DNA from: Bradyrhizobium sp. PSBB068
GTDB taxonomy: Bacteria > Pseudomonadota > Alphaproteobacteria > Rhizobiales > Xanthobacteraceae
Assembly (NCBI GenBank): GCA_016839165.1
Contig: CP069300.1
Coordinates: 558,001 to 622,000, forward strand
Direction: 5' to 3'
Length of the DNA stretch: 64,000 nt
The position numbers and the translations under genes are program-made. The notes beneath the pieces are model-generated. The model was not told the origin of the DNA. It searched no databases and worked only from the letters and a program-made list of their open reading frames with translations. The number at the start of each line of letters is the position of its first letter. Position 1 is the stretch's first letter. Below are positions 29,137 to 47,301 of this stretch, piece after piece.

Positions 29137-29685
29137 TTATCCGCCATTGCCGCCGATCACGGCGCGCACGGTGTTGTCGGGACCGAAATCCTCGGCGCTG
29201 TCGACATAGAGCAGCGCGGAGAGCTTCGAGCGCGCGCGGTTGACGCGGCTCTTGATAGTGCCGACCGCGCAGCCGCAGATCGCCGCGGCATCCTCGTAGG
29301 AGAAGCCGGATGCGCCCACCAGGATCAACGCTTCGCGCTGGTCCTGCGGCAGCTTTTCCAGCGCCGCGCGGAATTCCTCGAACTCCAGATGCGCGGCCTG
29401 CGACGGCTGGCTCTTCAGCGTCTTGGCATAGTTGCCCTCGGCATCCTCGACTTCGCGGCGCCGTTTGCGGTAGTCGGAGCGAAACAGGTTGCGCAGGATG
29501 GTGAACAACCACGCGGGAAGGTTGGAGCCGGGCTGGAACGAGTCGATGTTGGCGATCGCGCGCAGCAGCGTCTCCTGCACCAGATCGTCGGCGCGGTCAC
29601 CATTACCGGATAGCGAGATCGCGAACGCGCGCAGGCTCGGGACCGACGCCAGGATGTCGTCGCGAAGTTCATTCGTGAGAGGCAT
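29137..29685 (-). CDS. ecfG: General stress response sigma factor EcfG
   Basis: A 182-residue ECF sigma factor of the EcfG (ECF15) group. Region 2 is DDLVQETLLRAIANIDSFQPG with LPAWLFTILRNLFRSDYRKRRRE. Region 4 is ALEKLPQDQREALILVGASGFSYEDAAAICGCAVGTIKSRVNRARSKL. It directs RNA polymerase to GGAAC-N16/17-CGTT promoters. It is held inactive by NepR and freed when phosphorylated PhyR takes NepR away. The start codon touches the nepR stop, so nepR-ecfG is a two-gene operon, divergent from phyR. Confidence 0.95.
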   Translation of the reverse strand: MPLTNELRDDILASVPSLRAFAISLSGNGDRADDLVQETLLRAIANIDSFQPGSNLPAWLFTILRNLFRSDYRKRRREVEDAEGNYAKTLKSQPSQAAHLEFEEFRAALEKLPQDQREALILVGASGFSYEDAAAICGCAVGTIKSRVNRARSKLSALLYVDSAEDFGPDNTVRAVIGGNGG

Positions 29686-29984: not shown

Positions 29985-30009
29985 AATGCGAAGTTGCGCA
30001 GAAAGTTCC
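29985..30009 (-). promoter_or_regulatory. Possible EcfG promoter of nepR-ecfG (one mismatch)
   Basis: On the minus strand GGAAC (30009-30005), 16 bases, then CATT where the consensus is CGTT. It is 85 bases upstream of the nepR start. Autoregulation of ecfG is usual in this group, but the minus-10 mismatch keeps confidence low. Confidence 0.4.
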
Positions 30010-30030
30010 GGAAGGCTGGAACTATTTCGT

Positions 30031-30055
30031 GGAACTTTTCCGGCTTTCGCGCGTA
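30031..30055 (+). promoter_or_regulatory. Possible EcfG promoter of phyR (one mismatch)
   Basis: GGAAC (30031-30035), 16 bases, then CGTA instead of CGTT. It is about 130 bases upstream of the phyR start. Another GGAAC at 30018 lacks a partner. Confidence 0.4.
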
Positions 30056-30186: not shown

Positions 30187-30999
30187 ATGTCCCGATCGCA
30201 GATCGTTGCCGAACACCTTCCGCTGCTGCGCCGTTACGCACGCGCGCTGACCGGAAACCAGGCGTCGGGGGACGCCTATGTCGGGGCCATGCTCGAGGCC
30301 CTGCTGCAGGATGGATCATTGCTGGACCAGGCGCATGGCCCGCGCGCCGGCCTGTTTCGGCTGTTCACCCAGATCTGGAATTCGGTGTCGGTGAACAACA
30401 ACGACAATGAAGACGTGGCGACGCTGTCTCTGCCGCCGGAGCGCCGGCTTTCCAACATCACGCCGCTGCCGCGGCAGGCCTTCCTGCTGCTGTCGCTGGA
30501 AGGCTTTTCGGAGGAGGAGGTCGGCTACATTCTCGGCACCGATATCGCCGAGACGCGCAAGCTGACCGATGCCGCCGGCCGCGAGATGGCCGCCGAGATC
30601 GCCACCGATGTCCTGATCATCGAGGACGAGACGTTCATCGCGATGGATCTCGAGAGTCTGGTGAAGAATCTCGGCCACAACGTTATCGGCGTCGCGCGCA
30701 CCCACTCCGACGCGGTGGCGCTCGCCACGAACAAGAAGCCCGGCCTGATCCTCGCCGACATCCAGCTCGCCGACGGCTCGTCGGGCCTCGATGCGGTGAA
30801 CGAGCTGCTGCGCACCTTCGAGGTGCCGGTGGTGTTCATCACGGCCTATCCGGAGCGCTTCCTGACCGGCGAACGGCCGGAGCCGGCATTCCTGATCTCG
30901 AAACCGTTCCAGCCGGCGATGGTGTCGGCGGTGGCGAGCCAGGCGCTGTTCTTCCAGCGCAACTCGCGCAACCGCACGCCGCGTGCGGCGTCGGCATGA
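30187..30999 (+). CDS. phyR: General stress response anti-anti-sigma regulator PhyR
   Basis: A 270-residue response regulator. Residues 1-130 are an EcfG-like sigma mimic (LPLLRRYARALTG, DAYVGAMLEALL, LPRQAFLLLSLEGFSEEEVGYILG). Residues 135-260 are a receiver domain with acidic residues IIEDE, phospho-acceptor Asp 191 in ILADIQLADGSSG, the Thr of VVFITAYPE and Lys in LISKPF. Once phosphorylated it sequesters NepR and releases EcfG. GTGGGA precedes ATG 30187; upstream open frame is non-coding. A strong terminator follows. Confidence 0.95.
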   Translation: MSRSQIVAEHLPLLRRYARALTGNQASGDAYVGAMLEALLQDGSLLDQAHGPRAGLFRLFTQIWNSVSVNNNDNEDVATLSLPPERRLSNITPLPRQAFLLLSLEGFSEEEVGYILGTDIAETRKLTDAAGREMAAEIATDVLIIEDETFIAMDLESLVKNLGHNVIGVARTHSDAVALATNKKPGLILADIQLADGSSGLDAVNELLRTFEVPVVFITAYPERFLTGERPEPAFLISKPFQPAMVSAVASQALFFQRNSRNRTPRAASA

Positions 31000-31101: not shown

Positions 31102-31126
31102 GGAACAGAGATCATCGACACGAGTT
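31102..31126 (+). promoter_or_regulatory. Possible EcfG promoter of the hybrid kinase gene (one mismatch)
   Basis: GGAAC (31102-31106), 16 bases, AGTT in place of CGTT. It is 34 bases before the GTG start of the kinase gene and after the phyR terminator, so well placed. It would put the kinase in the EcfG regulon. Confidence 0.45.
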
Positions 31127-37641: not shown

Positions 37642-37989
37642 ATGGACACGACGCAACGCGACCGGACGGTCGGCTTTCTTTGCCTGGAGGTGACGGCGTT
37701 CGGCTGGGCGCTGAACTGGCCGCTGATGAAGCTGCTGCTGCAACAATGGCCGCGGCTGTTCGCCCGCGAGCTCGCCGGCACTTGCGCGGCGGCGATCCTG
37801 GGCACGCTGGCGCTGGTCCGCGGCCAGTCGCTCGCGGTGCCGCGTGAGGCGATCCCGCGGCTGCTTTTCGCCTCCTTCACCAACGTCTTTGCCTGGATGG
37901 GCTTCGGCACCATCGCGATGAAGTTCGTCACGGTCGGCGAGGGCGCGCTGCTTGCGATTGAACACGTCGGGGCACGCCTGGCAGCATAA
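37642..37989 (+). pseudogene. Truncated EamA/DMT-family transporter (N-terminal third only)
   Basis: The first 104 residues or so match the start of a drug/metabolite transporter: GFLCLEVTAFGWALNWPLMK, LFARELAGTCAAAILG, and FASFTNVFAWMGFGTIAMKFVTVGEGALLAI. Full proteins have about 290-300 residues and ten helices; here the frame ends after only three or four with an unrelated tail (EHVGARLAA). No continuation is seen in other frames downstream. This fits a 3' deletion or insertion, with the join near 37960. It is probably non-functional. Confidence 0.75.
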
Positions 37990-38652: not shown

Positions 38653-38677
38653 GGAACGGACATCGGCACATCGCGTT
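38653..38677 (+). promoter_or_regulatory. EcfG-type promoter upstream of the 46-residue gene
   Basis: GGAAC (38653-38657), 16 bases, CGTT (38674-38677): an exact match to the sigma-EcfG consensus, 23 bases before the ATG at 38700. Confidence 0.8.
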
Positions 38678-38699
38678 CTCCTGAAAAGGGAGCTTGGCC

Positions 38700-38840
38700 A
38701 TGCGCAAGGCGATCGCGCGGCTTGATGCGGAGCAGAAGGCGCAGCTGCTTTATCTGGCGGACCTCGGCACGGCGATGTTCACGTCCGCACTCGTGGTCTG
38801 CACCCTGAAAGCGGCCGTTGACCTCTTCGTCGGCAGCTGA
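38700..38840 (+). CDS. Small membrane-type protein (46 residues), likely stress-induced
   Basis: Too short for most gene finders. It starts ATG 38700 with AAAAGGGA 8 bases upstream. The protein begins MRKAIARLDAEQKAQLLYLA, then LGTAMFTSALVVCTLKAAVD forms one probable helix. No family is recognised. The exact EcfG promoter directly upstream is the best evidence that it is a real gene. It converges with the next minus-strand gene. Confidence 0.6.
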   Translation: MRKAIARLDAEQKAQLLYLADLGTAMFTSALVVCTLKAAVDLFVGS

Positions 38841-38863
38841 ATGCCGCCTGTGAATGCGCGCCG

Positions 38864-39109
38864 TCACGCGTCGCTTGGCGCATCCTCTCCCTGCGTGTGG
38901 CCGTCAGGCCCTCGATCGAACACCCCGTAGTCGCTGGATTTCACTCCGGCTGAACCGTCGACGCCAACGCCGGCCAGACCGAGCCTGAGCAGCTCGCGGA
39001 CCGCTGCGGCGCGGGTCGGCATGCGATGCTTGAAGCGGAAATCATCGAGGGCAGCCAATTCCTCAGGCGACAACATCACTTGCAGTCGCTCGGCGCGCAA
39101 CTCGTTCAT
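38864..39109 (-). CDS. Ribbon-helix-helix-like small protein
   Basis: An 81-residue protein. MNELRAERLQVMLSPEELAALDDFRFKHRMPTRAAAVRELLRLGL has the beta strand plus two-helix pattern of CopG/Arc-type DNA-binding or antitoxin-like proteins. The C-terminal half is polar and probably unstructured. No toxin gene is adjacent. An exact EcfG promoter lies 40-64 bases upstream, opposite a second one serving the divergent gene pair, so it is probably stress-induced. Confidence 0.72.
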   Translation of the reverse strand: MNELRAERLQVMLSPEELAALDDFRFKHRMPTRAAAVRELLRLGLAGVGVDGSAGVKSSDYGVFDRGPDGHTQGEDAPSDA

Positions 39110-39148
39110 CGCAAGATACCCAGACTTAGCTGTTTGAGTAACTTGCTA

Positions 39149-39173
39149 AACGAGCAAACTTTCCGTGAGTTCC
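39149..39173 (-). promoter_or_regulatory. EcfG-type promoter of the ribbon-helix-helix gene
   Basis: On the minus strand GGAAC (39173-39169), 16 bases, CGTT (39152-39149): exact consensus, 40 bases from the start codon. Confidence 0.8.
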
Positions 39174-39242
39174 CACGCTTTAGACAAAAGCATCAAATTA
39201 GCAAAATTATCAAGCAAAATCAATATCTTATGTAAAAAATTG

Positions 39243-39268
39243 GGAACGGTCCGGCGGTCTGCTTCGTT
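39243..39268 (+). promoter_or_regulatory. EcfG-type promoter of the 39288 gene pair
   Basis: GGAAC (39243-39247), 17 bases, CGTT (39265-39268): exact consensus. It is 19 bases before ATG 39288, giving a short leader, and divergent from the promoter at 39149-39173. Confidence 0.8.
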
Positions 39269-39287
39269 GTGTTGCGGGAGTGATGCC

Positions 39288-39464
39288 ATGACCAACGACG
39301 TCAAGCTGCCCCGCAAGCTATCCGAGGAGCCGGGAGCGCCGGAACCGCGGCGCCCGAGCCACGCTCGGATCATCGATCAACTCGACCGTTGGGCCAATAG
39401 CCCCGGTCTGCAACCGCCAAGGATGGACGATGGAGAGGATGATTCAACGACGGAAGCGATCTGA
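39288..39464 (+). CDS. Small acidic/polar protein (58 residues), hypothetical
   Basis: ATG 39288 has GGGAG 7 bases upstream. The protein is polar and Pro-rich (LPRKLSEEPGAPEPRRPSH), then ARIIDQLDRWANSPGLQPP and an acidic end (DDGEDDSTTEAI). No membrane segment or known domain. It lies behind an exact EcfG promoter and overlaps the next gene by 35 bases in another frame. Confidence 0.6.
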   Translation: MTNDVKLPRKLSEEPGAPEPRRPSHARIIDQLDRWANSPGLQPPRMDDGEDDSTTEAI

Positions 39465-39624
39465 GCCCCACACATTCGAGCAGCGCCTCGAGGAACACCG
39501 CGTGCGGCTAGAAAACTTGCTCGCTCAGTTGCCCCCCGGCGCCGAGCGCGAGCAGATCATTGCGCGCATCGATCAACTGAAGACGGCGGTGGAGCTCAAC
39601 GCGATGCTCTCGACGACCGCATAG
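39430..39624 (+). CDS. Small charged helical protein (64 residues), hypothetical
   Basis: MIQRRKRSEPHTFEQRLEEH begins after MER; RLENLLAQLPPGAEREQIIA and LKTAVELNAMLS follow, giving two charged amphipathic helices. From memory, similar proteins occur in related alphaproteobacteria as hypothetical proteins. AGGATGGACGATGGAGAGGATG-type purine-rich bases precede the start. It overlaps and is probably coupled to the 39288 gene, and so would share its EcfG promoter. Confidence 0.7.
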   Translation: MERMIQRRKRSEPHTFEQRLEEHRVRLENLLAQLPPGAEREQIIARIDQLKTAVELNAMLSTTA

Positions 39625-39656
39625 ACGGATCGCGGCCACGCCGCGCGGCGGGCCGC

Positions 39657-39944
39657 TCAGCATCCTCGGCAGACCGAATTCAGCTTTGCCTTGAGGGCGG
39701 GACCGTCCCCCAGTGCGACGGCATCGAAGGTCATCGGCAAGATAAACTGGAAGTCTTCGCCCGCCGTGTCCGCAGGGAATGGCGGGCGGGGCGCGGGCCT
39801 GGAGCAGACGGTTGGAAAAATCCTGTCTCCATGCTGCGGCTGAAGGGGTGACTTTTGGGGCTGCGCTGCTCTCGGCGAGTGTGGGAGCCGTGGCAGCAAA
39901 GAGCAAAGCAATACAAATGAACGCCGGCGCCGGCCACTTTGCAT
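39657..39944 (-). pseudogene. Possible frameshifted gene for a small secreted protein
   Basis: On the minus strand one frame encodes a convincing signal peptide and mature start (PAPAFICIALLFAATAPTLA, then ESSAAPKVTPSAAAWRQDFS), but it has no nearby start codon. The frame with an ATG (39944) gives instead an Arg-rich start, and ends DFQFILPMTFDAVALG..LKAKLNSVC. The signal peptide and C-terminal part thus lie in different frames. A decayed or mis-sequenced gene explains this, but with no homology search the claim is weak. Otherwise 39625-40095 has no gene. Confidence 0.3.
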
Positions 39945-40095
39945 GGGGTTGTTTTCGATATTTCGGCCTGTGCGGGTACCGTTCCAAAAAGTGAAGGGCC
40001 GGAGGTATCCTCTGCCGCCGGAATCCTTGGCGCGCGCGGGGCCAGCCGGTAGGATGGAACCCGGACGTGGCCAGGGACCAGGGGAAGACCGTAGA

Positions 40096-40317
40096 ATGAA
40101 GCATGTCGACGTCGCGGTGATTGCTGCCACGCTGTGGCTGCTGGCGTCGATGGTGCTGGACATCCTGACGCCGAAGTCGATCACCGTGTTCATGATCGCA
40201 GCCGCGCTCGCCCCGCCGTTCCTGATCGGGATCGCCATCCATTTCGCGCGCGAATATTTCAAGGCCAAGCGGCGCAGCTACCAGCCGCCGCAATGGGACG
40301 AACGCTTCAGGAACTAA
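40096..40317 (+). CDS. Small two-helix membrane protein (73 residues)
   Basis: ATG 40096 (MKHVDVAVIAATLWLLASMV). Two hydrophobic segments (about 5-22 and 30-50, FMIAAALAPPFLIGIAIHF) are followed by a basic/aromatic cytoplasmic tail (YFKAKRRSYQPPQWDERF). No known domain. The open frame extends upstream without a better start. It lies in the stress-gene region but I see no exact EcfG promoter for it. Confidence 0.65.
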   Translation: MKHVDVAVIAATLWLLASMVLDILTPKSITVFMIAAALAPPFLIGIAIHFAREYFKAKRRSYQPPQWDERFRN

Positions 40318-40388
40318 GCGGGGCAGGGCTGCAAGAAGCGCTGCGTCAGCCGCATTGAACTGCGTCCATGGCTTGCTAAGCTTGCGCC

Positions 40389-41069
40389 ATGACCGAGCAA
40401 CTCACCGACACGATCAGCCGCCTCTACACCGACCCCGGCGAATATGTCGACAGCGACCATCCCGCCGTCGAGGCGTTCGCCCGCGCCGCCGTTCCACGCG
40501 GGGCCAGCACCCGCGAGATCGCGAGCCGGCTCTACACCGCGGTGCGCGACGGCATCCGCTACAACCCCTATGTCAGCATGCGTTCGCCGGAGAGCTATCG
40601 CGCCTCCAGCGTGCTCGCCGCCGGCAACGGCTATTGCGTCGGCAAGGCGGCGCTCTATGCGGCGGCCTGCCGGGTCCACGGCATCCCGGCCCTGGTCGGC
40701 TTCGCCGATGTCCGCAACCATCTCACCACCGAGAAGCTGCGCCAGAGCATGGGCTCGGACCTGTTCACCTGGCATGGCTTCACCGAAGTGTTCGTCGACG
40801 GCGCCTGGCGCAAGGCGACCCCGACCTTCAACGACACGCTGTGCGCCAAGCTCGGCGTCAAGCCGCTCGACTTCGACGGCCATTCCGACGCGCTGCTGCA
40901 TCCCTTCGATGGTGAGGGCCGTGCCTACATGCAATACGTCAACGATCACGGCAGCTATCACGACGTTCCCGCCAAGTTCCTGATGCGCGAGATGGCGCGC
41001 GAATACGCCAACATGCAGGGCGAGGACATGTCCGGCCGCGACATGGAGCGCGAGGCCGCGGAACAATAA
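40389..41069 (+). CDS. Transglutaminase-like (papain-fold) protein
   Basis: A 226-residue cytoplasmic protein of the transglutaminase-like superfamily. The catalytic Cys is in NGYCVGKAALYAAACRVHG (Cys 83), and the His is in TWHGFTEVFVDGAWRKATPT (His 129), the standard Cys-His(-Asp) layout. The region before it (TAVRDGIRYNPYVSM) matches the usual leading helix. Bacterial members are mostly proteases or uncharacterised. The C terminus is Met/Glu-rich (MREMAREYANMQGEDM). It starts ATG 40389. The DMT transporter gene follows after 41 bases. Confidence 0.88.
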   Translation: MTEQLTDTISRLYTDPGEYVDSDHPAVEAFARAAVPRGASTREIASRLYTAVRDGIRYNPYVSMRSPESYRASSVLAAGNGYCVGKAALYAAACRVHGIPALVGFADVRNHLTTEKLRQSMGSDLFTWHGFTEVFVDGAWRKATPTFNDTLCAKLGVKPLDFDGHSDALLHPFDGEGRAYMQYVNDHGSYHDVPAKFLMREMAREYANMQGEDMSGRDMEREAAEQ

Positions 41070-41110
41070 TAGCGGGCGCGGGCCTGCGCACCGGCTGAGG
41101 GGGCGGTGTC

Positions 41111-42037
41111 ATGGATGCGGAGCTGCCGAAAGCGCCGGTCGGCCGCCCGGCCACCGGTTGGGACGGCGCGATCGCACTGATCGGCTTCATGCTGGTCGCG
41201 GTCGCGCAGGCCTCCAACCAGGTTCTGGCGCGCGGCCTTGCAGGCTCGGTGCCGCCGTTCTCGCTGGCCTTCTTCCGCTGGAGCATCATCGCGATCGGGC
41301 TGGCGCCGTTCGCGGTCGCGGCGATCCGCGACGGCAAGATCCCGCTGGCGCAGAACCTCTGGCCGATCCTCGCCGCCGGCTTCCTCGGCATGTTCCTGTG
41401 CGGCGGCCCGGTCTACATCGCGGGCATCACCACCACCGCGATCCACATCGCGCTGATCTTCGCGCTGTCGCCGATCATGGTGCTGTTGATTTCGGCCGCG
41501 CTCGGCATCGAGCATATCGGTCCGCTGCAATGGCTCGGCACGGCGCTGGCGCTCGCCGGCGCGCTCTTGATCGTCTCCGGCGGTCACCTCGAAACGCTGA
41601 CGCAATCGAGCGCGGCCTGGGGCGATCTGCTGGTGGTGGGTGCGATGCTCGGCTGGTCGGGCTACACGCTGGTGCAATCGCGCGTCGCGCCGCGCGCCTC
41701 GCTGCTGGCGCGGGTCAGCCTGTTCTCGGCGGCGGGCGCGCTGTGCTCGCTGCCGCCGGCGCTGCAGGAGATGTGGGCGACGCCGGCTGCGGTGTTCAAC
41801 GCGAGGGCGTTCGAGGCCTATGTGTTCGCCGGTCTGGTGCCCGGCCTGATCGCCTATGCCGGCTTCGCCTGGCTCGGCGCCCGGTTCGGCTCGGTGCGGA
41901 CGTCGCTGGTGCTGTACGTCGCGCCGATCGCGAGCGCGCTGTTGTCGTGGATCATCCTCGGCGAGCCGCCGAAGCCGATCCATCTGGTCGGCGGCTTGCT
42001 GATCCTCGGCGGTGTCTGGGCCAGCCTGCGCAAATAG
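41111..42037 (+). CDS. EamA/DMT-family transporter (complete)
   Basis: A 308-residue inner-membrane protein with ten predicted helices in two EamA repeats. The first repeat contains ALIGFMLVAVAQASNQVLAR and PPFSLAFFRWSIIAIGLAPF. The second contains LGWSGYTLVQSR, FAGLVPGLIAYAGFAWLGAR and the end LSWIILGEPPKPIHLVGGLL. Such proteins export metabolites or drugs; the substrate is unknown. GGGGG precedes ATG 41111. It is intact, unlike the truncated relative at 37642. Confidence 0.9.
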   Translation: MDAELPKAPVGRPATGWDGAIALIGFMLVAVAQASNQVLARGLAGSVPPFSLAFFRWSIIAIGLAPFAVAAIRDGKIPLAQNLWPILAAGFLGMFLCGGPVYIAGITTTAIHIALIFALSPIMVLLISAALGIEHIGPLQWLGTALALAGALLIVSGGHLETLTQSSAAWGDLLVVGAMLGWSGYTLVQSRVAPRASLLARVSLFSAAGALCSLPPALQEMWATPAAVFNARAFEAYVFAGLVPGLIAYAGFAWLGARFGSVRTSLVLYVAPIASALLSWIILGEPPKPIHLVGGLLILGGVWASLRK

Positions 42038-42054
42038 GCCAGCTCCCCGCCATT

Positions 42055-42079
42055 GCAACTTTTCCCGGCCTCGTGCGTT
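42055..42079 (+). promoter_or_regulatory. Possible EcfG promoter of the 61-residue gene (one mismatch)
   Basis: GCAAC (42055-42059; consensus GGAAC), 16 bases, CGTT (42076-42079). It is 39 bases before ATG 42118. Confidence 0.45.
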
Positions 42080-42117
42080 GAATCCAGCGTTGATTCAAGA
42101 ACTTAGTTGGAGGCCGC

Positions 42118-42303
42118 ATGAATCTCACTCCCCAGCAACGGAAAGAGCGTGATGCGCAGCGTCAGCAAGAGGCGTCGCAGGCGATGAAGGAGCATCGCGC
42201 CAACGAGAAGGCCTTCTACGACAATTTCCAGCGCCTCAAGGCCGAGCGGCAGGCGCGCGAAGCGGCGGGATCAGGGACGTCGGCGCAGCCCGGTTCGAAA
42301 TAA
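42118..42303 (+). CDS. Small highly charged helical protein (61 residues)
   Basis: Starts ATG 42118 with GGAGG 5 bases upstream. MNLTPQQRKERDAQRQQEAS and KEHRANEKAFYDNFQRLKAE are almost entirely charged, glutamine-rich helix. The C-terminal dozen residues are Gly/Ser. No known domain. It is probably a stress or nucleic-acid associated small protein by composition, which is inference. A near-consensus EcfG promoter precedes it. Confidence 0.75.
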   Translation: MNLTPQQRKERDAQRQQEASQAMKEHRANEKAFYDNFQRLKAERQAREAAGSGTSAQPGSK

Positions 42304-42369
42304 CACCGGCAACCGACCTCATCATGCAATCAAAGATGCAATCGCGCGACGTACCGCCCAAAAAAGAGC

Positions 42370-42402
42370 AGGGCGCGACCGGCATCACCACGGTCGCGCC
42401 CT
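42370..42402 (-). terminator. Hairpin in the 42304-42604 gap
   Basis: AGGGCGCGACC and GGTCGCGCCCT form an 11-bp perfect stem. On the minus strand a TTTTTT follows after 4 bases, on the plus strand none, so it best fits a minus-strand terminator although no minus-strand gene lies upstream. Nothing else is seen in this 301-bp gap except the promoter below. Confidence 0.45.
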
Positions 42403-42520
42403 ACGTCGCCGGTCAATGGGGCAGGGGGAATAACCGGCTCTTGCAATGACGCGCAGACCCCGGAGTCGTTCCGCGCCAATCGAAATTTTTTCGTACACGG
42501 TTAAGTGATGGTCGGACGCG

Positions 42521-42546
42521 AGAACCGCACAGGTTTAGTTCGCGTT
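42521..42546 (+). promoter_or_regulatory. Possible EcfG promoter of the 42605 gene (one mismatch)
   Basis: AGAAC (42521-42525; consensus GGAAC), 17 bases, CGTT (42543-42546), 59 bases before ATG 42605. Confidence 0.45.
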
Positions 42547-42604
42547 GTGTCCGTGATCGCCGAGGGATTGCTGAGCGAATTTCCATGGGGCGAGGGACAT
42601 CACC

Positions 42605-42997
42605 ATGTCAAAGATTCAAAAGGGAATTTTCGCTGCGTTGGCGGTCGGACTGACGCTCGGCGCGGTCCAGCTCGCATCCGGACACGATCTCATTGGCAGT
42701 CAGCAGGTCACCACCGCATTGGCGCCGGAGAGCGCCGTCAATCGTGCCGCCAAAACCGACCGTGCCGCGGTTCCATCGAGCAACCTGCCGAGCCGGACCG
42801 TTGCACTGAAGCTCGACCGGTTGCCGGACACGTCGGTGCTGGTCCGCGTCCCCATGGCGCGGGAAGAGGCCCGCAATCACTCCGCAGCGCCTGCCCGGGC
42901 CCGGCCCGGCGATACCCGCAAGGTCGCCTGCGAGCCGGTGGTCAGCGTCCTGACCGAAGTGGCCAAGCTGCTGCAGCCCGGCCGCTGCGTGACCTGA
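42605..42997 (+). CDS. Exported hypothetical protein (130 residues)
   Basis: MSKIQKGIFAALAVGLTLGA begins a signal peptide ending around LASGHD. The mature part is Ala/Arg/Pro-rich and low-complexity until a conserved-looking end (KVACEPVVSVLTEVAKLLQP then GRCVT) with two cysteines that could pair. No domain is recognised. A purine-rich ribosome site (GGGGCGAGGGA) precedes the ATG. A near-consensus EcfG promoter lies upstream. Confidence 0.75.
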   Translation: MSKIQKGIFAALAVGLTLGAVQLASGHDLIGSQQVTTALAPESAVNRAAKTDRAAVPSSNLPSRTVALKLDRLPDTSVLVRVPMAREEARNHSAAPARARPGDTRKVACEPVVSVLTEVAKLLQPGRCVT

Positions 42998-43027
42998 CGG
43001 GCGAACGCCAACTCAGCAGGCAACACT

Positions 43028-43130
43028 GTCATCGCCCGGCTTGACCGGGCGATCCAGTATTCCAGAGACAGTTGTAACTATGCGGATGAGCCGCAGCGTA
43101 CTGGATCGCCCGGTCAAGCCGGGCGATGAC
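43028..43130. repeat. Palindromic intergenic element with perfect 32-bp arms
   Basis: Arms 43028-43059 and 43099-43130 are exact reverse complements (core CGCCCGGCTTGACCGGGCGA), with a 39-bp centre. A related element is at 52056-52158. Confidence 0.85.
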
Positions 43131-43167
43131 ATGGTGGGTGCGGCTTGCACCTTGCCGGGTACGCAGG

Positions 43168-43617
43168 CTATTCTTCCTCTTCCGCCTCAGCACCACTCGC
43201 GGCACTGCGGCTTGCCATCAGGCCGAGCGCGAGGCCGCCGACCACCAGGATCGGGATCAGTCGCTTGACGCCGACGGCGCGGACAATCTGCAGACCGGTG
43301 GCGATCAAGGCGGGATCGGCGAACATGGTTGCCGCGGCCGATTTCGCGGCCTTGGCCGCCTTCTCTGCGCGCCGCTGCATCTCACGCTTGTGCGCCACGT
43401 ACACGGCAACGACGATCAAGGTGACGACCAGGAACAGGGCGGCGCCGGCGAGGCACGCCTCCACCGGTCCGTAGTGCTGCAGCACATACACGAAGGCCGC
43501 CGCACAGAGGAAGGCGAGGGTGATGAACAGCGCGATCGCGGCGGCCGCGGCCAGCGACGTCAGCCGCAGCGCGCTGCCGGTGGATTGCTTGACGTCATCG
43601 ATCAGCCGCTGAAGCAT
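43168..43617 (-). CDS. Membrane protein of phage-holin/YqjE-like type
   Basis: A 149-residue protein. A short N-terminal helix (MLQRLIDDVKQSTGSALRL) leads into two long hydrophobic segments (about 18-45 and 52-78), a Lys/Ala-rich cytoplasmic part (KREMQRRAEKAAKAAKSAAA), a further hydrophobic segment and an acidic end (GAEAEEEE). This is the layout of YqjE/holin-superfamily proteins usually paired with DUF883 proteins. The DUF883 gene is directly upstream on the same strand. The frame is open to 43662 but Met at 43617 fits the family. Confidence 0.75.
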   Translation of the reverse strand: MLQRLIDDVKQSTGSALRLTSLAAAAAIALFITLAFLCAAAFVYVLQHYGPVEACLAGAALFLVVTLIVVAVYVAHKREMQRRAEKAAKAAKSAAATMFADPALIATGLQIVRAVGVKRLIPILVVGGLALGLMASRSAASGAEAEEEE

Positions 43618-43741
43618 TGACCAGCCTTGTCTTCGACCTTGCCGTGAAAAGCGCATCGACAAACGAGGCGGCGGCGCGCCACCGCTGCCATCTCGTCCAG
43701 AATGGTGGTTTGCGCATGACCACCATCGGGTTGAATCGGAT

Positions 43742-44113
43742 CTAGCGCCGCCAGGTGACGCCGATCAAAAAGCCGATGCCGAGCGCCAGGCCAACGGTCG
43801 CCAGCGGCCGCTGCGTGATCACCTCTTCCAGCGACTCCTCGATCGAGGAGGCAGCTTCCTGCGCTGCGCCCATCATCGCGCTGCCGCGCTCCGACATGTC
43901 GTCGAGCGCATCTTCCGCGTTGGCGCGCGCATCCTTGTAGCGGCGGCGAGCCTGCTTCCCCGCGTTGTTGGCAAATGAGTTGAGCGCGTCGGTGATCTGT
44001 TCGGTGAGGGCTGCAATGTCGTTCTTCACGGCGGTGACATCCTTTTCCAGGCGTTCGTAGGTCGCTTTGTCGGTCATGTTCTTGATCCCAAATACGCTGT
44101 CCGTGTTCGACAT
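43742..44113 (-). CDS. DUF883-family (YqjD/ElaB-like) membrane-anchored protein
   Basis: A 123-residue protein: a long amphipathic region (LEKDVTAVKNDIAALTEQIT, then SFANNAGKQARRRYKDARAN) and a C-terminal membrane anchor PLATVGLALGIGFLIGVTWRR, the typical DUF883 ending. E. coli relatives YqjD and ElaB are inner-membrane proteins that bind ribosomes in stationary phase. GGGAGC precedes ATG 44113. An exact EcfG promoter lies 36-60 bases upstream, fitting stress or stationary-phase induction. It likely forms an operon with the holin-like gene. Confidence 0.88.
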   Translation of the reverse strand: MSNTDSVFGIKNMTDKATYERLEKDVTAVKNDIAALTEQITDALNSFANNAGKQARRRYKDARANAEDALDDMSERGSAMMGAAQEAASSIEESLEEVITQRPLATVGLALGIGFLIGVTWRR

Positions 44114-44148
44114 CGGAGGCTCCCGCTTCATTCGCGTATTGCGAGAAA

Positions 44149-44173
44149 AACGCCGCGCATCACGCAAAGTTCC
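44149..44173 (-). promoter_or_regulatory. EcfG-type promoter of the DUF883 gene
   Basis: On the minus strand GGAAC (44173-44169), 16 bases, CGTT (44152-44149): exact consensus, 36 bases from the start codon. Confidence 0.82.
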
Positions 44174-44249
44174 ATATGCGAAACTGTAGCTTCTTGTTCG
44201 TGCGCCTTATTCACGCGAACCGCTGCCCACTTCGCTTGAAAACGCTTTG

Positions 44250-45386
44250 CTATCCTTCGGGCAACTGCGGCGAATTGACCGGCATCAAATGCTCCTTGAC
44301 GATCAATGCCACGATCAGCAGCGGCGACGACAGGAAGGCGCCCATCGGGCCCCACAACCAGGTCCAGAACGCAAGGGCGAGAAAGACGGCGAGCGCATTC
44401 AGCGACAGCCTGCGGCCGACGATCGTCGGTGTCACGAAATGCCCTTCCATGAAGGTCACGACGGCAAAGCAGGCCGGTGCGATCAGTCCGGCGCCGATGG
44501 CCGGCGCGGAGATGATGCCGACCACGACCAGCACCACGAACATCGCGACCGGGCCGATGATCGGGATGAAGTTCAGCGTCGCGGCGAGCGCGCCGAGCCC
44601 GGCCGGATTGGGCATGCCGGTCGCCGCGCAGATCGCGCCGGTGACGATGCCGACGCCGACATTGATCATCGTCACCGTCAGCAGATAATTGCCGAGATGG
44701 GTTTCGAGCTCGTTGAGGATGCGCAGCGTACGTAGCCGCGCTTCGCGTTCGCTGAAGGTCATCACCAGCGCGCGGCGCAGGTCCTTCCAGCTCGCGATGA
44801 ACAGGATCAGGGTGGCGACGAACAGCAGGAATTCGGCGAAGGTCGGCGACAGGAATTCCAGCGTCGGCTGCACCCATTCGAATTTCGGCATCTGGAAGCT
44901 GGCCAGCGTGTCGGAGCCGCCGACCATGCTCTGCAATTCCTGCCACAGCGCAAGCGGCCGGTCGAACACGTGCAGCTTCTGCCTCAGGATCGCGCCGAGC
45001 TCGGGCAGACGCGAACTCCATTCCATCACTGGTGAGGCGATCAACCCGACCATGAAGGCAACGGCAGTGCCGACCGCGATCACGATCAGCACGGCGCCGA
45101 GCGCGCGCGGGATCCGGTAGCGCTCGAGCCGGCCTGCCGCCGGCGACAGCATGGTCCCGACAATGAAAGCCATGGTGATCGGAAGGAAGAAGGCGCGCGC
45201 CAAATAGAGCACCCCAACGATGACAATGATCAGCAGGGCGACCAGCGCGAAGGCGACGACCTCGGCGCGGCTGATCAGCGGCGGCAGTTCAGCCTTGCTG
45301 TCGGGGAGGGGCGTGCCTTCGGGGGCGTTGCCAAGCAGACGTTCACCCGGAAAGGCGCGCACCAGTTTCCTCCCGCACGAGGACAC
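44250..45386 (-). CDS. AI-2E family transporter
   Basis: A 378-residue inner-membrane protein with eight or so helices. Recognisable parts are LARAFFLPITMAFIVGTMLSP near the start, ETHLGNYLLTVTMINVGVGI, GLGALAATLNFIPIIGPVAM, and VGRRLSLNALAVFLALAFWTWLWGPMGAFLS near the end, the family signature. Members export signals or ions (TqsA/PerM group); the substrate is uncertain. An exact EcfG promoter lies 29-53 bases upstream, and a second one faces the other way for the L,D-transpeptidase gene. Confidence 0.9.
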   Translation of the reverse strand: MSSCGRKLVRAFPGERLLGNAPEGTPLPDSKAELPPLISRAEVVAFALVALLIIVIVGVLYLARAFFLPITMAFIVGTMLSPAAGRLERYRIPRALGAVLIVIAVGTAVAFMVGLIASPVMEWSSRLPELGAILRQKLHVFDRPLALWQELQSMVGGSDTLASFQMPKFEWVQPTLEFLSPTFAEFLLFVATLILFIASWKDLRRALVMTFSEREARLRTLRILNELETHLGNYLLTVTMINVGVGIVTGAICAATGMPNPAGLGALAATLNFIPIIGPVAMFVVLVVVGIISAPAIGAGLIAPACFAVVTFMEGHFVTPTIVGRRLSLNALAVFLALAFWTWLWGPMGAFLSSPLLIVALIVKEHLMPVNSPQLPEG

Positions 45387-45414
45387 ATGAATTTCGTATC
45401 AAATTGCGCGTGAC

Positions 45415-45439
45415 AACGACCGCGCCCGGCAGAAGTTCC
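45415..45439 (-). promoter_or_regulatory. EcfG-type promoter of the AI-2E transporter gene
   Basis: On the minus strand GGAAC (45439-45435), 16 bases, CGTT (45418-45415): exact consensus, 29 bases from the start codon. Confidence 0.82.
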
Positions 45440-45496
45440 ATCGCGGGTTCGTGAGATACGGCGGGTTGACAATCGCGGCTTCGCGACGATTCGGCC

Positions 45497-45522
45497 GGAA
45501 CTCTGTGGCGGCCACGCGCGTT
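45497..45522 (+). promoter_or_regulatory. EcfG-type promoter of the L,D-transpeptidase gene
   Basis: GGAAC (45497-45501), 17 bases, CGTT (45519-45522): exact consensus, 48 bases before ATG 45571. It is divergent from the promoter at 45415-45439. Confidence 0.82.
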
Positions 45523-45570
45523 GGCTTGGCATCGCATCACCACGATGCGCATCCCGTCCAGGGGCAGCAC

Positions 45571-46377
45571 ATGACACAGCAGTCTTTCTCCAGCCGCCGG
45601 CTTGCGTCGCGCGCCGCGCGCACCTTTGCTTTCGCCGGCGTCCTGTTCGTGACGCCATTCATTGTCACCACTTCGGCCAACGCCCAAGCGCTCGGCTATG
45701 CGTCGACGCAGCCGGGCGCATTCCCGTCCGACCAGGCGATGACCGATCCTTCGACCGAGGCCACCGAGGACGGCGTGCTGCCGGAGCGGCTGCGCCGCAC
45801 CACCGTCGCGCTCAACACGTCAGAGGCGCCGGGCACGATCATTATCGATACCGGCAACACCGCGCTGTATTACGTGCTCGGCGGCGGCCGTGCGATCCGT
45901 TATGGCGTCGGCGTCGGCCGCGAGGGCTTCACCTGGGCCGGCACCCAGACCATCAGCCGCAAGGCGGAGTGGCCGGACTGGCATCCGCCGGCCGAGATGA
46001 TCAAGCGCCAGCCCTATCTGCCGCGCTTCATGGCCGGCGGGCCGGGCAACCCGCTCGGTGCCCGCGCGATGTATCTCGGCTCCAGCGAGTACCGCATCCA
46101 CGGCACCAACGATCCCTCGACGATCGGCAAGTTCGTCTCGTCGGGCTGCATCCGCCTGACCAATGAGGACGTCTCCGACCTGTTCAGCCGGGTCGATGTC
46201 GGCACCAAGGTCGTGGTGCTGCCGAAGAACGCACCGCACCTTGCCGCGCGTGAGCTCGGCCCATCCACGACGCAGATCTCGGTCCGGCCGGCGCCGGTGC
46301 AGCCGCGCCCCGCGGTCATGACGCTGCCGTCCGGCCGTCAGGCGATGAACATCCCGGCGACTTCGTCGTTGTACTGA
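45571..46377 (+). CDS. L,D-transpeptidase (YkuD domain)
   Basis: A 268-residue exported enzyme that forms 3-3 cross-links or attaches lipoproteins to peptidoglycan. The signal peptide (about 1-38) ends SANAQA. The YkuD domain contains IIIDTGNTALYYVLGGGRAI, WPDWHPPAEM and the catalytic His 177 (YRIHGTND) and Cys 193 (FVSSGCIRLTNED). The C terminus is a Pro-rich extension. ATG 45571 has AGGGG upstream. Stress-linked cell-wall remodelling fits the exact EcfG promoter before it. DUF2865 follows after 26 bases. Confidence 0.94.
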   Translation: MTQQSFSSRRLASRAARTFAFAGVLFVTPFIVTTSANAQALGYASTQPGAFPSDQAMTDPSTEATEDGVLPERLRRTTVALNTSEAPGTIIIDTGNTALYYVLGGGRAIRYGVGVGREGFTWAGTQTISRKAEWPDWHPPAEMIKRQPYLPRFMAGGPGNPLGARAMYLGSSEYRIHGTNDPSTIGKFVSSGCIRLTNEDVSDLFSRVDVGTKVVVLPKNAPHLAARELGPSTTQISVRPAPVQPRPAVMTLPSGRQAMNIPATSSLY

Positions 46378-46403
46378 GCATCGGCGTTGGACCGGGGATC
46401 GGT

Positions 46404-47033
46404 ATGATGAAGCTCAATTCCAGGCGGTGGGCGTTCGGGACGGCGGCCTTGCTCGGCCTGTCCCTTGCGCCCGCGGCACAAGCCCAGGATTTCTTCTCAC
46501 AATTGTTCGGCGGCTTCATGCAGGGCCGTCCGCCGGTGATCCGGATGCCGTTCGACGACGGTCCGGCGCCTGTGCCGCGGGCCGAGCGACGTGCGCGCTA
46601 TGACGGCGGGCAGGCCTATTGCGTGCGCACCTGCGATGGCCGCTATTTTCCGCTGGCTGCGACCGGCAACCAGAGCAAGGCCGAGAGCTGCAACAGCTTC
46701 TGCCCGGCGAGCGCGACCGAAGTGGTCTATGGCGGCAACATCGACAATTCCGCGACGGAAGACGGCAAGCCTTATTCCGAGTTGCCGAACGCATTCCGCT
46801 ATCGCGACGAGATCGTCTCCGGCTGCACCTGCAACGGCAAGGATCCCGTCGGGCTCGCTGCAGTGAAGATCGAGGACGATCCGACCTTGCGCAAGGGCGA
46901 CATCGTCGCCGGCAAGGATGGGCTGATGTCGGTCAGCCGCCCCGACCGTCGCGGAGCCTCGCTCAACTTCACGCCGGCGCCGGAACGCATCCGCGCCAAG
47001 TATGAGCGCGCGCCGGTGCTGGCGCGCGAATAA
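46404..47033 (+). CDS. DUF2865 exported protein
   Basis: A 209-residue secreted protein with signal peptide ending AAQAQD (about residue 28). The domain has the paired-Cys pattern AYCVRTCDGRYFPL, SCNSFCPAS and GCTCNG, typical of DUF2865 proteins of Rhizobiales; function unknown. The rest is polar. It shares direction with the L,D-transpeptidase gene 26 bases upstream and is probably co-transcribed, suggesting a cell-envelope role. Confidence 0.88.
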   Translation: MMKLNSRRWAFGTAALLGLSLAPAAQAQDFFSQLFGGFMQGRPPVIRMPFDDGPAPVPRAERRARYDGGQAYCVRTCDGRYFPLAATGNQSKAESCNSFCPASATEVVYGGNIDNSATEDGKPYSELPNAFRYRDEIVSGCTCNGKDPVGLAAVKIEDDPTLRKGDIVAGKDGLMSVSRPDRRGASLNFTPAPERIRAKYERAPVLARE

Positions 47034-47074
47034 CGCCGCTCGGATCAGTCCAGCGAGATCCGGTTCCGGCGTAA

Positions 47075-47099
47075 GGAACCGGACTTCCTCTCGCACGTT
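47075..47099 (+). promoter_or_regulatory. EcfG-type promoter of the 51-residue membrane protein gene
   Basis: GGAAC (47075-47079), 16 bases, CGTT (47096-47099): exact consensus, 47 bases before ATG 47146. Confidence 0.82.
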
Positions 47100-47145
47100 A
47101 GGTCAGTGCGAACAGCACATTCATCGATGCCACCAGGGGGCCCGC

Positions 47146-47301
47146 ATGCTCGTCGGCGTACTCGTCACTTTCCTTGTCATTATTCTCGTTCTTTATCTGA
47201 TCAACATGCTGCCGCTCGACGGCCGCGCCAAGCAGATCGCGCGCGTCGTCGTCATCATCATCGGCATCGTCTCGCTGCTGAAATATCTCGCGGTGTTCTA
47301 G
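47146..47301 (+). CDS. Thivi_2564-family small membrane protein
   Basis: A 51-residue protein, two helices: MLVGVLVTFLVIILVLYLIN and KQIARVVVIIIGIVSLLKYL, linked by MLPLDGRA. This matches the Thivi_2564 family of small membrane proteins with unknown role. AGGGGG precedes ATG 47146. The exact EcfG promoter upstream and the terminator downstream make it a stand-alone stress-induced unit. Confidence 0.85.
   Translation: MLVGVLVTFLVIILVLYLINMLPLDGRAKQIARVVVIIIGIVSLLKYLAVF

What the first reader, a model, noticed from the sequence alone, without database searches (positions are those of the whole stretch)
38653..47301. Clustered EcfG regulon: seven exact GGAAC-N16/17-CGTT promoters in 8.7 kb
Exact matches lie at 38653 (+), 39173 (-), 39243 (+), 44173 (-), 45439 (-), 45497 (+) and 47075 (+). 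Each is 19 to 48 bases upstream of, and directed toward, a start codon. By simple counting (9 fixed bases, 2 spacings, 2 strands) about 0.13 matches are expected by chance in this length. Two pairs are divergent. The targets are small or envelope proteins: a 46-residue membrane protein, a ribbon-helix-helix protein, two small charged proteins, DUF883, AI-2E transporter, L,D-transpeptidase/DUF2865 and Thivi_2564. The ecfG-nepR-phyR switch is only 8 kb away. Physical clustering of the regulon beside its regulator is unusual and gives function to several anonymous ORFs.
Basis: partly seen in the sequence, partly recalled or inferred. Interest (0 to 1): 0.78.

Follow-up and report, generated by a model that had tools for sequence, protein, structure and literature searches.

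The report
Inherited stress-gene island beside its switch
In this Bradyrhizobium-type soil bacterium, seven on-switches for the general stress response sit within 8.5 kb, close to the gene for the factor expected to read them, and related species show that this grouping is old and that most of its switches are well preserved.

Summary
In detail: all seven exact GGAAC-N16/17-CGTT sites of the window lie where stated, 19-48 bases before start codons; the genome's own motif density predicts 0.12 here. Across 80 named Bradyrhizobium loci the exact motif precedes DUF883 in 76/76, L,D-transpeptidase in 72/79, Thivi_2564 in 67/74 and AI-2E in 59/80 orthologues, but three well-sampled neighbours in 0/76, 1/77 and 1/72; a mirrored motif gave 0. 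I add four variant sites: nepR-ecfG, phyR and two small genes. The cluster is an inherited block: phyR is followed within 10 kb by DUF883, AI-2E or L,D-transpeptidase in 10 of the 12 nearest genomes of other genera (8 of 10 genera), and it was split in much of the B. japonicum branch. Split blocks largely keep their promoters, so adjacency seems unnecessary for regulation. The nepR-ecfG promoter is off-consensus in 37 of 37 Bradyrhizobium rows, while the main effectors keep CGTT, which suggests damped feedback. That EcfG drives these genes is inferred; no expression data for this strain were available.

The parts
29137..29685 (-). ecfG, ECF sigma factor
   Evidence: Sigma70_r2, Sigma70_r4_2 and PhyR_sigma2 Pfam hits; next best match in the genome 36% identity
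29685..29900 (-). nepR, anti-sigma factor
   Evidence: PF18557 E=5.7e-16; the only NepR found in the genome
29985..30009 (-). variant EcfG-type promoter of nepR-ecfG, GGAAC-N16-CATT
   Evidence: CATT in 27 and AATT in 10 of 37 Bradyrhizobium rows (4 of them contigs fetched twice), CGTT in none; one-base -10 class: 28 of 37, reversed control 2
30031..30055 (+). variant EcfG-type promoter of phyR, GGAAC-N16-CGTA
   Evidence: CGTA in 24, CGTC in 1, neither in 12 of 37 rows, CGTT in none; 25 of 37, reversed control 6
30187..30999 (+). phyR, anti-sigma antagonist response regulator
   Evidence: PhyR_sigma2, PhyR_sigma-like and Response_reg hits; orthologue in 39 of 40 genus genomes, own included
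38653..38677 (+). EcfG-type promoter of the 46-aa gene (exact, N16)
   Evidence: exact in 11 of 13 orthologues; exact also in 2 of 3 distant copies elsewhere
38700..38840 (+). gene of a 46-aa small protein, membrane-like by eye
   Evidence: no Pfam or NCBIfam match; found in 10 of 60 genus genomes, own included
38864..39109 (-). 81-aa protein, ribbon-helix-helix-like by eye only
   Evidence: 28 orthologues aligned; no Pfam or PDB match
39133..39151 (.). imperfect palindrome of the type TTGAGTA-N3-TACTCAA, candidate operator of the 81-aa protein, overlapping its -10 box
   Evidence: loose form somewhere in the intergenic stretch in 24 of 28 copies (22 at or near this place), 500 mononucleotide shuffles mean 0.07, maximum 2; strict form in 5 of 28, maximum 0 in shuffles
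39149..39173 (-). EcfG-type promoter of the 81-aa gene (exact, N16)
   Evidence: exact in 7 of 12 orthologues; over 28 copies the -10 box is CGTT in 16, TGTT in 6, other in 6
39243..39268 (+). EcfG-type promoter of the 58-aa/64-aa genes (exact, N17)
   Evidence: exact in 11 of 12 island orthologues but in 0 of 17 copies elsewhere
39288..39464 (+). 58-aa charged protein gene
   Evidence: orthologues in 50 of 60 genus genomes, own included
39430..39624 (+). 64-aa charged protein gene, overlapping the 58-aa gene, probably co-transcribed
42055..42079 (+). variant EcfG-type promoter of a 61-aa gene, GCAAC-N16-CGTT
   Evidence: of 10 orthologues 2 have the exact motif and 7 a one-base -35 variant; reversed controls 0
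42118..42303 (+). 61-aa charged protein gene
   Evidence: ORF; no Pfam match
42521..42546 (+). variant EcfG-type promoter of the 130-aa gene, AGAAC-N17-CGTT
   Evidence: of 58 orthologue rows 3 have the exact motif and 33 a one-base variant at the first two -35 bases; reversed controls 0
42605..42997 (+). 130-aa protein with an N-terminal signal-like stretch, neighbour of phyR in relatives
   Evidence: within about 0.6 kb after phyR in 11 of the 12 nearest other-genus genomes and 9 kb away in one, not found in 8 further genera; conserved C-terminal two-cysteine segment
43168..43617 (-). 149-aa membrane protein downstream of DUF883, possibly YqjE-like
   Evidence: PF07332 in 12 of 25 orthologues, best E=4.5e-6, window copy E=0.018 below cut-off; unrelated membrane families also hit up to 9 of 25; no site of its own (0/76)
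43742..44113 (-). DUF883 (ElaB/YqjD family) gene
   Evidence: PF05957 E=4e-8, above cut-off
44149..44173 (-). EcfG-type promoter of DUF883 (exact, N16)
   Evidence: exact in 76 of 76 orthologues, and at a copy on a Nitrobacter plasmid
44250..45386 (-). AI-2E family transporter gene
   Evidence: PF01594 E=3.3e-35
45415..45439 (-). EcfG-type promoter of AI-2E (exact, N16)
   Evidence: exact in 59 of 80 orthologues
45497..45522 (+). EcfG-type promoter of the L,D-transpeptidase gene (exact, N17)
   Evidence: exact in 72 of 79 orthologues
45571..46377 (+). L,D-transpeptidase (YkuD) gene
   Evidence: PF03734 E=4.7e-25; best NCBIfam model LdtE, far below its cut-off
46404..47033 (+). DUF2865 gene, possibly co-transcribed with the transpeptidase gene
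   Evidence: PF11064 E=5.2e-34; exact site in only 1 of 77 orthologues
47075..47099 (+). EcfG-type promoter of Thivi_2564 (exact, N16)
   Evidence: exact in 67 of 74 orthologues
47146..47301 (+). Thivi_2564 family membrane protein gene
   Evidence: NF041949 58.3 bits, cut-off 33

Best explanation
[quoted passage not shown] Under stress phosphorylated PhyR binds NepR, which frees EcfG; EcfG-RNA polymerase then starts transcription a few bases after each CGTT box and turns on envelope and small proteins: DUF883 with its membrane partner, the AI-2E transporter, L,D-transpeptidase with DUF2865, Thivi_2564, and in this lineage the 46-, 81- and 58/64-aa genes. Two further small genes and the switch genes themselves carry variant sites. 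The grouping is the remnant of an old block shared by Bradyrhizobium and its nearest sampled genera, enlarged in this lineage by about 11 kb between phyR and the 130-aa gene, which hold three of the seven sites. Shown here: sites, spacing, orientation, conservation, gene order, presence of the regulator. Inferred: that EcfG is the sigma factor, the transcription starts, stress induction, and the roles of the proteins. The partner-switch mechanism is taken from the literature (PMC8103513, passages).
For: Position and number far above chance. Exact motif upstream of orthologues in 80 named loci: DUF883 76/76, L,D-transpeptidase 72/79, Thivi_2564 67/74, AI-2E 59/80, 46-aa 11/13, 58-aa 11/12, 81-aa 7/12, against holin149 0/76, DUF2865 1/77, malate synthase 1/72, EamA 0/13, m73 0/12, TGase 0/11, TetR 0/9, P450 0/6; mirrored motif 0 for every gene, 50 permuted motifs at most 0.30 hits on average per gene set. 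A CsbD gene lies in the same block in many relatives with an exact motif in 37 of 37 copies found by a sequence signature; csbD is a direct EcfG target in Sphingopyxis granuli (PMC7083833, passages). GGAAC-N16-CGTT and natural GCAAC, CATT and TGTT variants are published there. One NepR, no close EcfG paralogue. A DUF883 gene on a Nitrobacter plasmid has the exact motif 35 bases upstream.
Against: No transcription data for this strain and no start site mapped. AI-2E lacks the exact motif in 21 of 80 loci; in the nearest other-genus genomes it has it in 1 of 8 within 250 bases and 0 of 8 within 220, though 5 of 8 have a one-base -10 variant. The 81-aa gene lacks it in 5 of 12. The 58-aa promoter is at consensus only in island copies (0 of 17 elsewhere). 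Genome-wide the motif is rarer than its reverse (111 versus 152), so the motif alone is weak evidence at other places. The one-base -10 class used for nepR and phyR has a background: reversed controls reach 10 of 58 and 14 of 83 rows at other genes.
Confidence: 0.9

Rival explanations
1. Another ECF sigma factor with a GGAAC-type -35 preference reads these promoters, wholly or in part, and the nearness of ecfG is incidental.
For: A GGAAC-type -35 box is also used by other ECF factors such as E. coli RpoE (PMC8103513, passages), and the genome holds six further EcfG-like sequences at 25-36% identity.
Against: GGAAC-N16-CGTT is the published EcfG consensus; the block is syntenic with ecfG in 10 of the 12 nearest other-genus genomes; CsbD in the same block shares the motif and is an EcfG target elsewhere.
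Confidence: 0.06
2. The cluster is kept together by selection, because nearness to ecfG helps expression or joint inheritance, rather than being a historical remnant.
For: The block is kept with ecfG in 10 of the 12 nearest other-genus genomes and is unsplit in 40 of 66 scorable named Bradyrhizobium loci; motif-bearing genes were added next to it in the window's lineage; L,D-transpeptidase keeps its exact motif in 39/39 unsplit but 22/26 split loci (p=0.02, uncorrected for four tests).
Against: The other three genes keep their motif after a split as often as before: DUF883 25/25 versus 39/39, AI-2E 21/26 versus 28/40, Thivi_2564 24/25 versus 32/37. The tree needs 6 changes of the split state.
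Confidence: 0.25
3. The matches are chance or composition artefacts.
For: Genome-wide the motif is no commoner than its reverse.
Against: 0 of 100 shuffles reach seven; clustering; conservation with clean controls.
Confidence: 0.01

Closest known systems
EcfG (ECF15) general stress regulon of Alphaproteobacteria, e.g. Bradyrhizobium diazoefficiens, Sphingopyxis granuli
   Same: Promoter consensus and spacing, PhyR-NepR-EcfG switch, csbD among the targets, tolerance of CATT, TGTT and GCAAC variants (PMC7083833, passages)
   Different: A review describes the switch genes and a kinase at the locus (PMC8103513, passages); in the papers my searches reached I found no report of a multi-promoter effector block conserved beside it. 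The B. japonicum regulon paper (Gourion 2009) was not available to me
E. coli RpoS targets yqjCDEK and elaB
   Same: DUF883-family protein under the general stress sigma factor; yqjD has a sigma-S promoter (PMC10746276, passages) and ElaB is RpoS-regulated (PMC6389858, abstract)
   Different: Unrelated sigma factor; ribosome binding of the Bradyrhizobium protein untested; likeness of the 149-aa partner to YqjE is weak
Rhodopseudomonas palustris ecfG locus (RPA4225)
   Same: rpa4222 (hypothetical) and rpa4220 (L,D-transpeptidase) are listed among genes raised on syringic acid, log2 5.91 (marked significant) and 4.92 (not marked) (PMC6974649, passages); RPA4225 is ecfG (PMC13343836, passages)
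   Different: That rpa4220 and rpa4222 belong to this block is my inference from numbering and from the gene order of unnamed relatives; that study did not test EcfG as far as the passages show

Membership tests
EcfG (ECF15) general stress regulon | -35 GGAAC and -10 CGTT with 16-17 bases between | tested here: met
   7 exact sites
EcfG (ECF15) general stress regulon | site close upstream of and directed at a gene | tested here: met
   gaps 19-48 bases for all 7
EcfG (ECF15) general stress regulon | site conserved in orthologues beyond chance | tested here: met
   with mirrored and permuted controls; less fully for AI-2E (59/80) and the 81-aa gene (7/12)
EcfG (ECF15) general stress regulon | ecfG-nepR-phyR switch present in the genome | tested here: met
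EcfG (ECF15) general stress regulon | switch genes have EcfG-dependent promoters | tested here: inconclusive
   only off-consensus boxes, CATT/AATT for nepR (37 of 37 rows) and CGTA/CGTC for phyR (25 of 37); reversed controls 2 and 6 of 37
EcfG (ECF15) general stress regulon | transcription lost in an ecfG or phyR mutant | not testable with these tools
   no expression data for this strain
YqjD/ElaB-type operon | DUF883 domain | tested here: met
   PF05957 E=4e-8, above cut-off
YqjD/ElaB-type operon | YqjE-like membrane partner | tested here: inconclusive
   PF07332 in 12 of 25 partners, window copy below cut-off, other membrane families in up to 9 of 25
YqjD/ElaB-type operon | ribosome binding at the membrane | not testable with these tools
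   needs biochemistry
Ribbon-helix-helix regulator (81-aa protein) | recognised RHH domain or fold | tested here: inconclusive

The most novel reading that the evidence does not exclude
The ecfG locus in this part of the family heads an ancient stress island with graded promoters: effectors keep the optimal CGTT box while the switch's own promoters are held at weaker boxes (CATT/AATT and CGTA), which would damp positive feedback; the phyR-adjacent 130-aa secreted-looking protein would be a so far unrecognised member of the response, and the 81-aa protein an EcfG-driven autorepressor acting at a palindrome over its own promoter.
Probability: 0.4. Interest if true: 0.65.

Novelty: new variant of a known kind. 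Interest (0 to 1): 0.5.

Why it matters
It turns a motif sighting into a conserved, testable gene set inherited beside its regulator. A protein family that E. coli places under RpoS (DUF883) is here tied to the unrelated sigma factor EcfG. The block names likely core members of the Bradyrhizobium stress response, a response that matters for desiccation tolerance and nodulation, and it may be easy to overlook in much of the B. japonicum branch because it was split there. The conserved off-consensus boxes at the switch offer a simple promoter-swap test of how feedback strength is set.

Tried and rejected
Chance: rejected by shuffles, clustering and conservation. That the cluster is peculiar to this strain: rejected. 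That adjacency is needed for promoter upkeep: not supported for three of four genes; L,D-transpeptidase shows a slight difference. A lost eighth promoter: five named relatives (L078, L080, L082, L086, L090) have an exact site for a minus-strand gene between the 64-aa and 73-aa genes; the window keeps only a GGAAC with a degenerate -10 at 39960-39985, and tblastn found no significant trace of the protein. Literature: searches (listings, then passages of ten or so papers) brought up no description of this block; Gourion 2009, the B. japonicum regulon paper, is cited by others but I did not see it, and its gene list may include several of these genes. PDB and Pfam gave nothing for the 81-aa protein.

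Limits of the counts. The 80 named loci are the best-scoring hits of one AI-2E query (239 candidates, best 80 kept). Of the 80 named loci 66 could be scored unsplit or split, the other 14 having too little flank or a broken AI-2E reading. The tree is of one gene. The palindrome was first found by eye; its control shuffles single bases only.

Full report
What was claimed and what is there. Widening the spacer to 15-18 adds none; freeing the last base of the -35 box adds none, though 4 of 100 shuffles then reach seven; freeing the first base of the -10 box adds one match at 31102, inside the long kinase ORF. Each of the seven points at a start codon 19-48 bases away. The genome has 111 matches in 7.67 Mb and 152 matches to the reversed pattern, so the motif is not enriched overall; the local density is 57 times the genome average, and random placement never gave six or more in such a stretch in 20,000 trials. 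Of the first 30 genome sites, 23 lie outside the window, 15 of them called inside genes; that simple caller makes errors, as noted in the observation check.

The regulator. EcfG, NepR and PhyR are recognised between 29137 and 30999. One NepR was found in the genome and no close second EcfG.

Are the sites real? I compared 80 named Bradyrhizobium loci. The exact motif stands upstream of DUF883 in 76 of 76, L,D-transpeptidase in 72 of 79, Thivi_2564 in 67 of 74, AI-2E in 59 of 80, the 46-aa gene in 11 of 13, the 58-aa gene in 11 of 12 and the 81-aa gene in 7 of 12. For genes of the same stretch without a site the figures are holin149 0 of 76, DUF2865 1 of 77, malate synthase 1 of 72, EamA 0 of 13, m73 0 of 12, TGase 0 of 11, TetR 0 of 9, P450 0 of 6. 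The mirrored motif is absent for every gene, and 50 permuted motifs average at most 0.30 hits per gene set. In the aligned promoters of DUF883, AI-2E and Thivi_2564 many spacer positions vary (the boxes themselves are fixed by the choice of rows). In the 12 nearest other-genus genomes DUF883 has the exact site in 6 of 6, L,D-transpeptidase in 8 of 8 and Thivi_2564 in 6 of 9; AI-2E has it in 0 of 8 within 220 bases, with a one-base -10 variant in 5, and in 1 of 8 within 250 bases. A DUF883 gene on a Nitrobacter hamburgensis plasmid has an exact site 35 bases upstream.

Variants are known from Sphingopyxis (GCAAC at -35; CATT and TGTT at -10; PMC7083833, passages). With such variants four more candidates appear: a 61-aa gene (GCAAC-N16-CGTT, 42055), the 130-aa gene (AGAAC-N17-CGTT, 42521), nepR-ecfG (GGAAC-N16-CATT, 29985) and phyR (GGAAC-N16-CGTA, 30031). 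For the 61-aa gene 2 of 10 orthologues have the exact motif and 7 a one-base -35 variant; for the 130-aa gene 3 and 33 of 58 rows; reversed controls for these two classes are 0. The nepR site is CATT in 27 and AATT in 10 of 37 Bradyrhizobium rows; the phyR site is CGTA in 24, CGTC in 1 and neither in 12; CGTT occurs in none. Reversed controls for a one-base -10 variant are 2 and 6 of 37 there, and reach 10 of 58 and 14 of 83 at two other genes, so the phyR site is the less certain. In five of the eight more distant genera fetched (L167-L169, L173, L174) both are CGTT. The Sphingopyxis study reports that moving the -10 box from CGTT to CATT or TGTT lowers transcription in vitro and the reverse raises it, so 'weak switch, strong effectors' is a reasonable, untested reading; AATT and CGTA were not seen tested in those passages.

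How old is the cluster? In 10 of the 12 nearest other-genus genomes (8 of 10 genera) phyR is followed within 10 kb by DUF883, AI-2E or L,D-transpeptidase, often in the order 130-aa gene, holin149, DUF883, AI-2E, L,D-transpeptidase, DUF2865, Thivi_2564, malate synthase; several genomes lack some members (L155-L157 and L159 lack the DUF883 pair, L161 and L166 lack AI-2E and L,D-transpeptidase). In Bradyrhizobium 40 of 66 scorable named loci are unsplit, meaning the 130-aa gene or phyR lies in the flank, and 26 split; on an AI-2E tree with 8 outgroup rows, all unsplit, the state needs 6 changes. In seven congeners with both genes on one contig but unlinked, AI-2E and phyR lie 0.95 to 7.8 Mb apart in contig coordinates. 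The window's lineage has 11.6 kb between phyR and the 130-aa gene, which hold three of the seven sites. After a split DUF883, AI-2E and Thivi_2564 keep their exact motif as often as before; L,D-transpeptidase slightly less (22/26 versus 39/39, p=0.02 uncorrected). So the adjacency looks inherited and not needed for the promoters to be maintained.

The lineage-specific genes. The 81-aa/58-aa/64-aa set also occurs elsewhere in other species. Over 28 copies of the 81-aa gene's promoter (12 named island copies, the window, 15 elsewhere) GGAAC is present in every one and the -10 box is CGTT in 16, TGTT in 6 and another in 6. The 58-aa promoter is exact in 12 of 13 island copies including the window, but in none of the 15 elsewhere, where 7 have GAAAC-N16/17-CATT (0 of 17, which adds a paralogue and one short row). 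A palindrome of the type TTGAGTA-N3-TACTCAA lies in the stretch between the two genes in 24 of 28 copies in a loose form, 22 of them at or near the 81-aa gene's -10 box, against a shuffle mean of 0.07 and maximum of 2; the strict form is in 5. This suggests an autorepressor.

A related member absent here. In many relatives a CsbD gene (PF05532) lies near Thivi_2564 and malate synthase; 37 copies found by signature all have an exact site within 150 bases. The window has no room for it between Thivi_2564 and malate synthase, but two of five CsbD genes elsewhere in this genome have an exact site just upstream.

What it works like. It works as a set of EcfG targets. The DUF883 gene recalls E. coli yqjD and elaB, which are RpoS-driven (PMC10746276, passages; PMC6389858, abstract). 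Expression support in a relative is thin: R. palustris rpa4222 and rpa4220 both appear among genes raised on syringic acid (PMC6974649, passages) and ecfG is RPA4225 (PMC13343836, passages); placing rpa4220 and rpa4222 in this block is my inference.

Verdict. The comparative data add an inherited block, four candidate variant sites and a graded-promoter hypothesis, and they correct the idea that the arrangement is peculiar to this strain. EcfG dependence remains to be measured.

Noticed in passing
29985-30055: Divergent candidate promoters of nepR-ecfG and phyR: off-consensus -10 boxes in 37 of 37 (nepR) and 25 of 37 (phyR) Bradyrhizobium rows, CGTT in none, unlike the effectors.
   Followed up: yes
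42605-42997: A 130-aa secreted-looking protein lies within about 0.6 kb after phyR in 11 of the 12 nearest other-genus genomes, with a conserved C-terminal two-cysteine segment; possibly an unrecognised part of the response.
   Followed up: partly
39133-39151: Imperfect palindrome over the promoter of the 81-aa protein, present also in copies elsewhere in other genomes.
   Followed up: partly
39960-39985: GGAAC with a degenerate -10 where five relatives (L078, L080, L082, L086, L090) have an exact site for a minus-strand gene (84 aa in three of them, 75 aa in L086, a 100-aa reading in L090); that gene was not found here.
   Followed up: yes
43030-43131: Inverted repeat, read by eye, between the 130-aa gene and holin149, the junction at which the block is split in other species.
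   Followed up: no
37642-37989: 115-aa ORF matching only part of an EamA domain, perhaps a truncated gene.
   Followed up: no
L199:3500-3931: A Nitrobacter hamburgensis plasmid carries a DUF883 gene with an exact EcfG-type site upstream, next to a likely relative of holin149.
   Followed up: yes
L195, L197: Two of five CsbD genes elsewhere in this genome have exact EcfG-type sites just upstream.
   Followed up: partly
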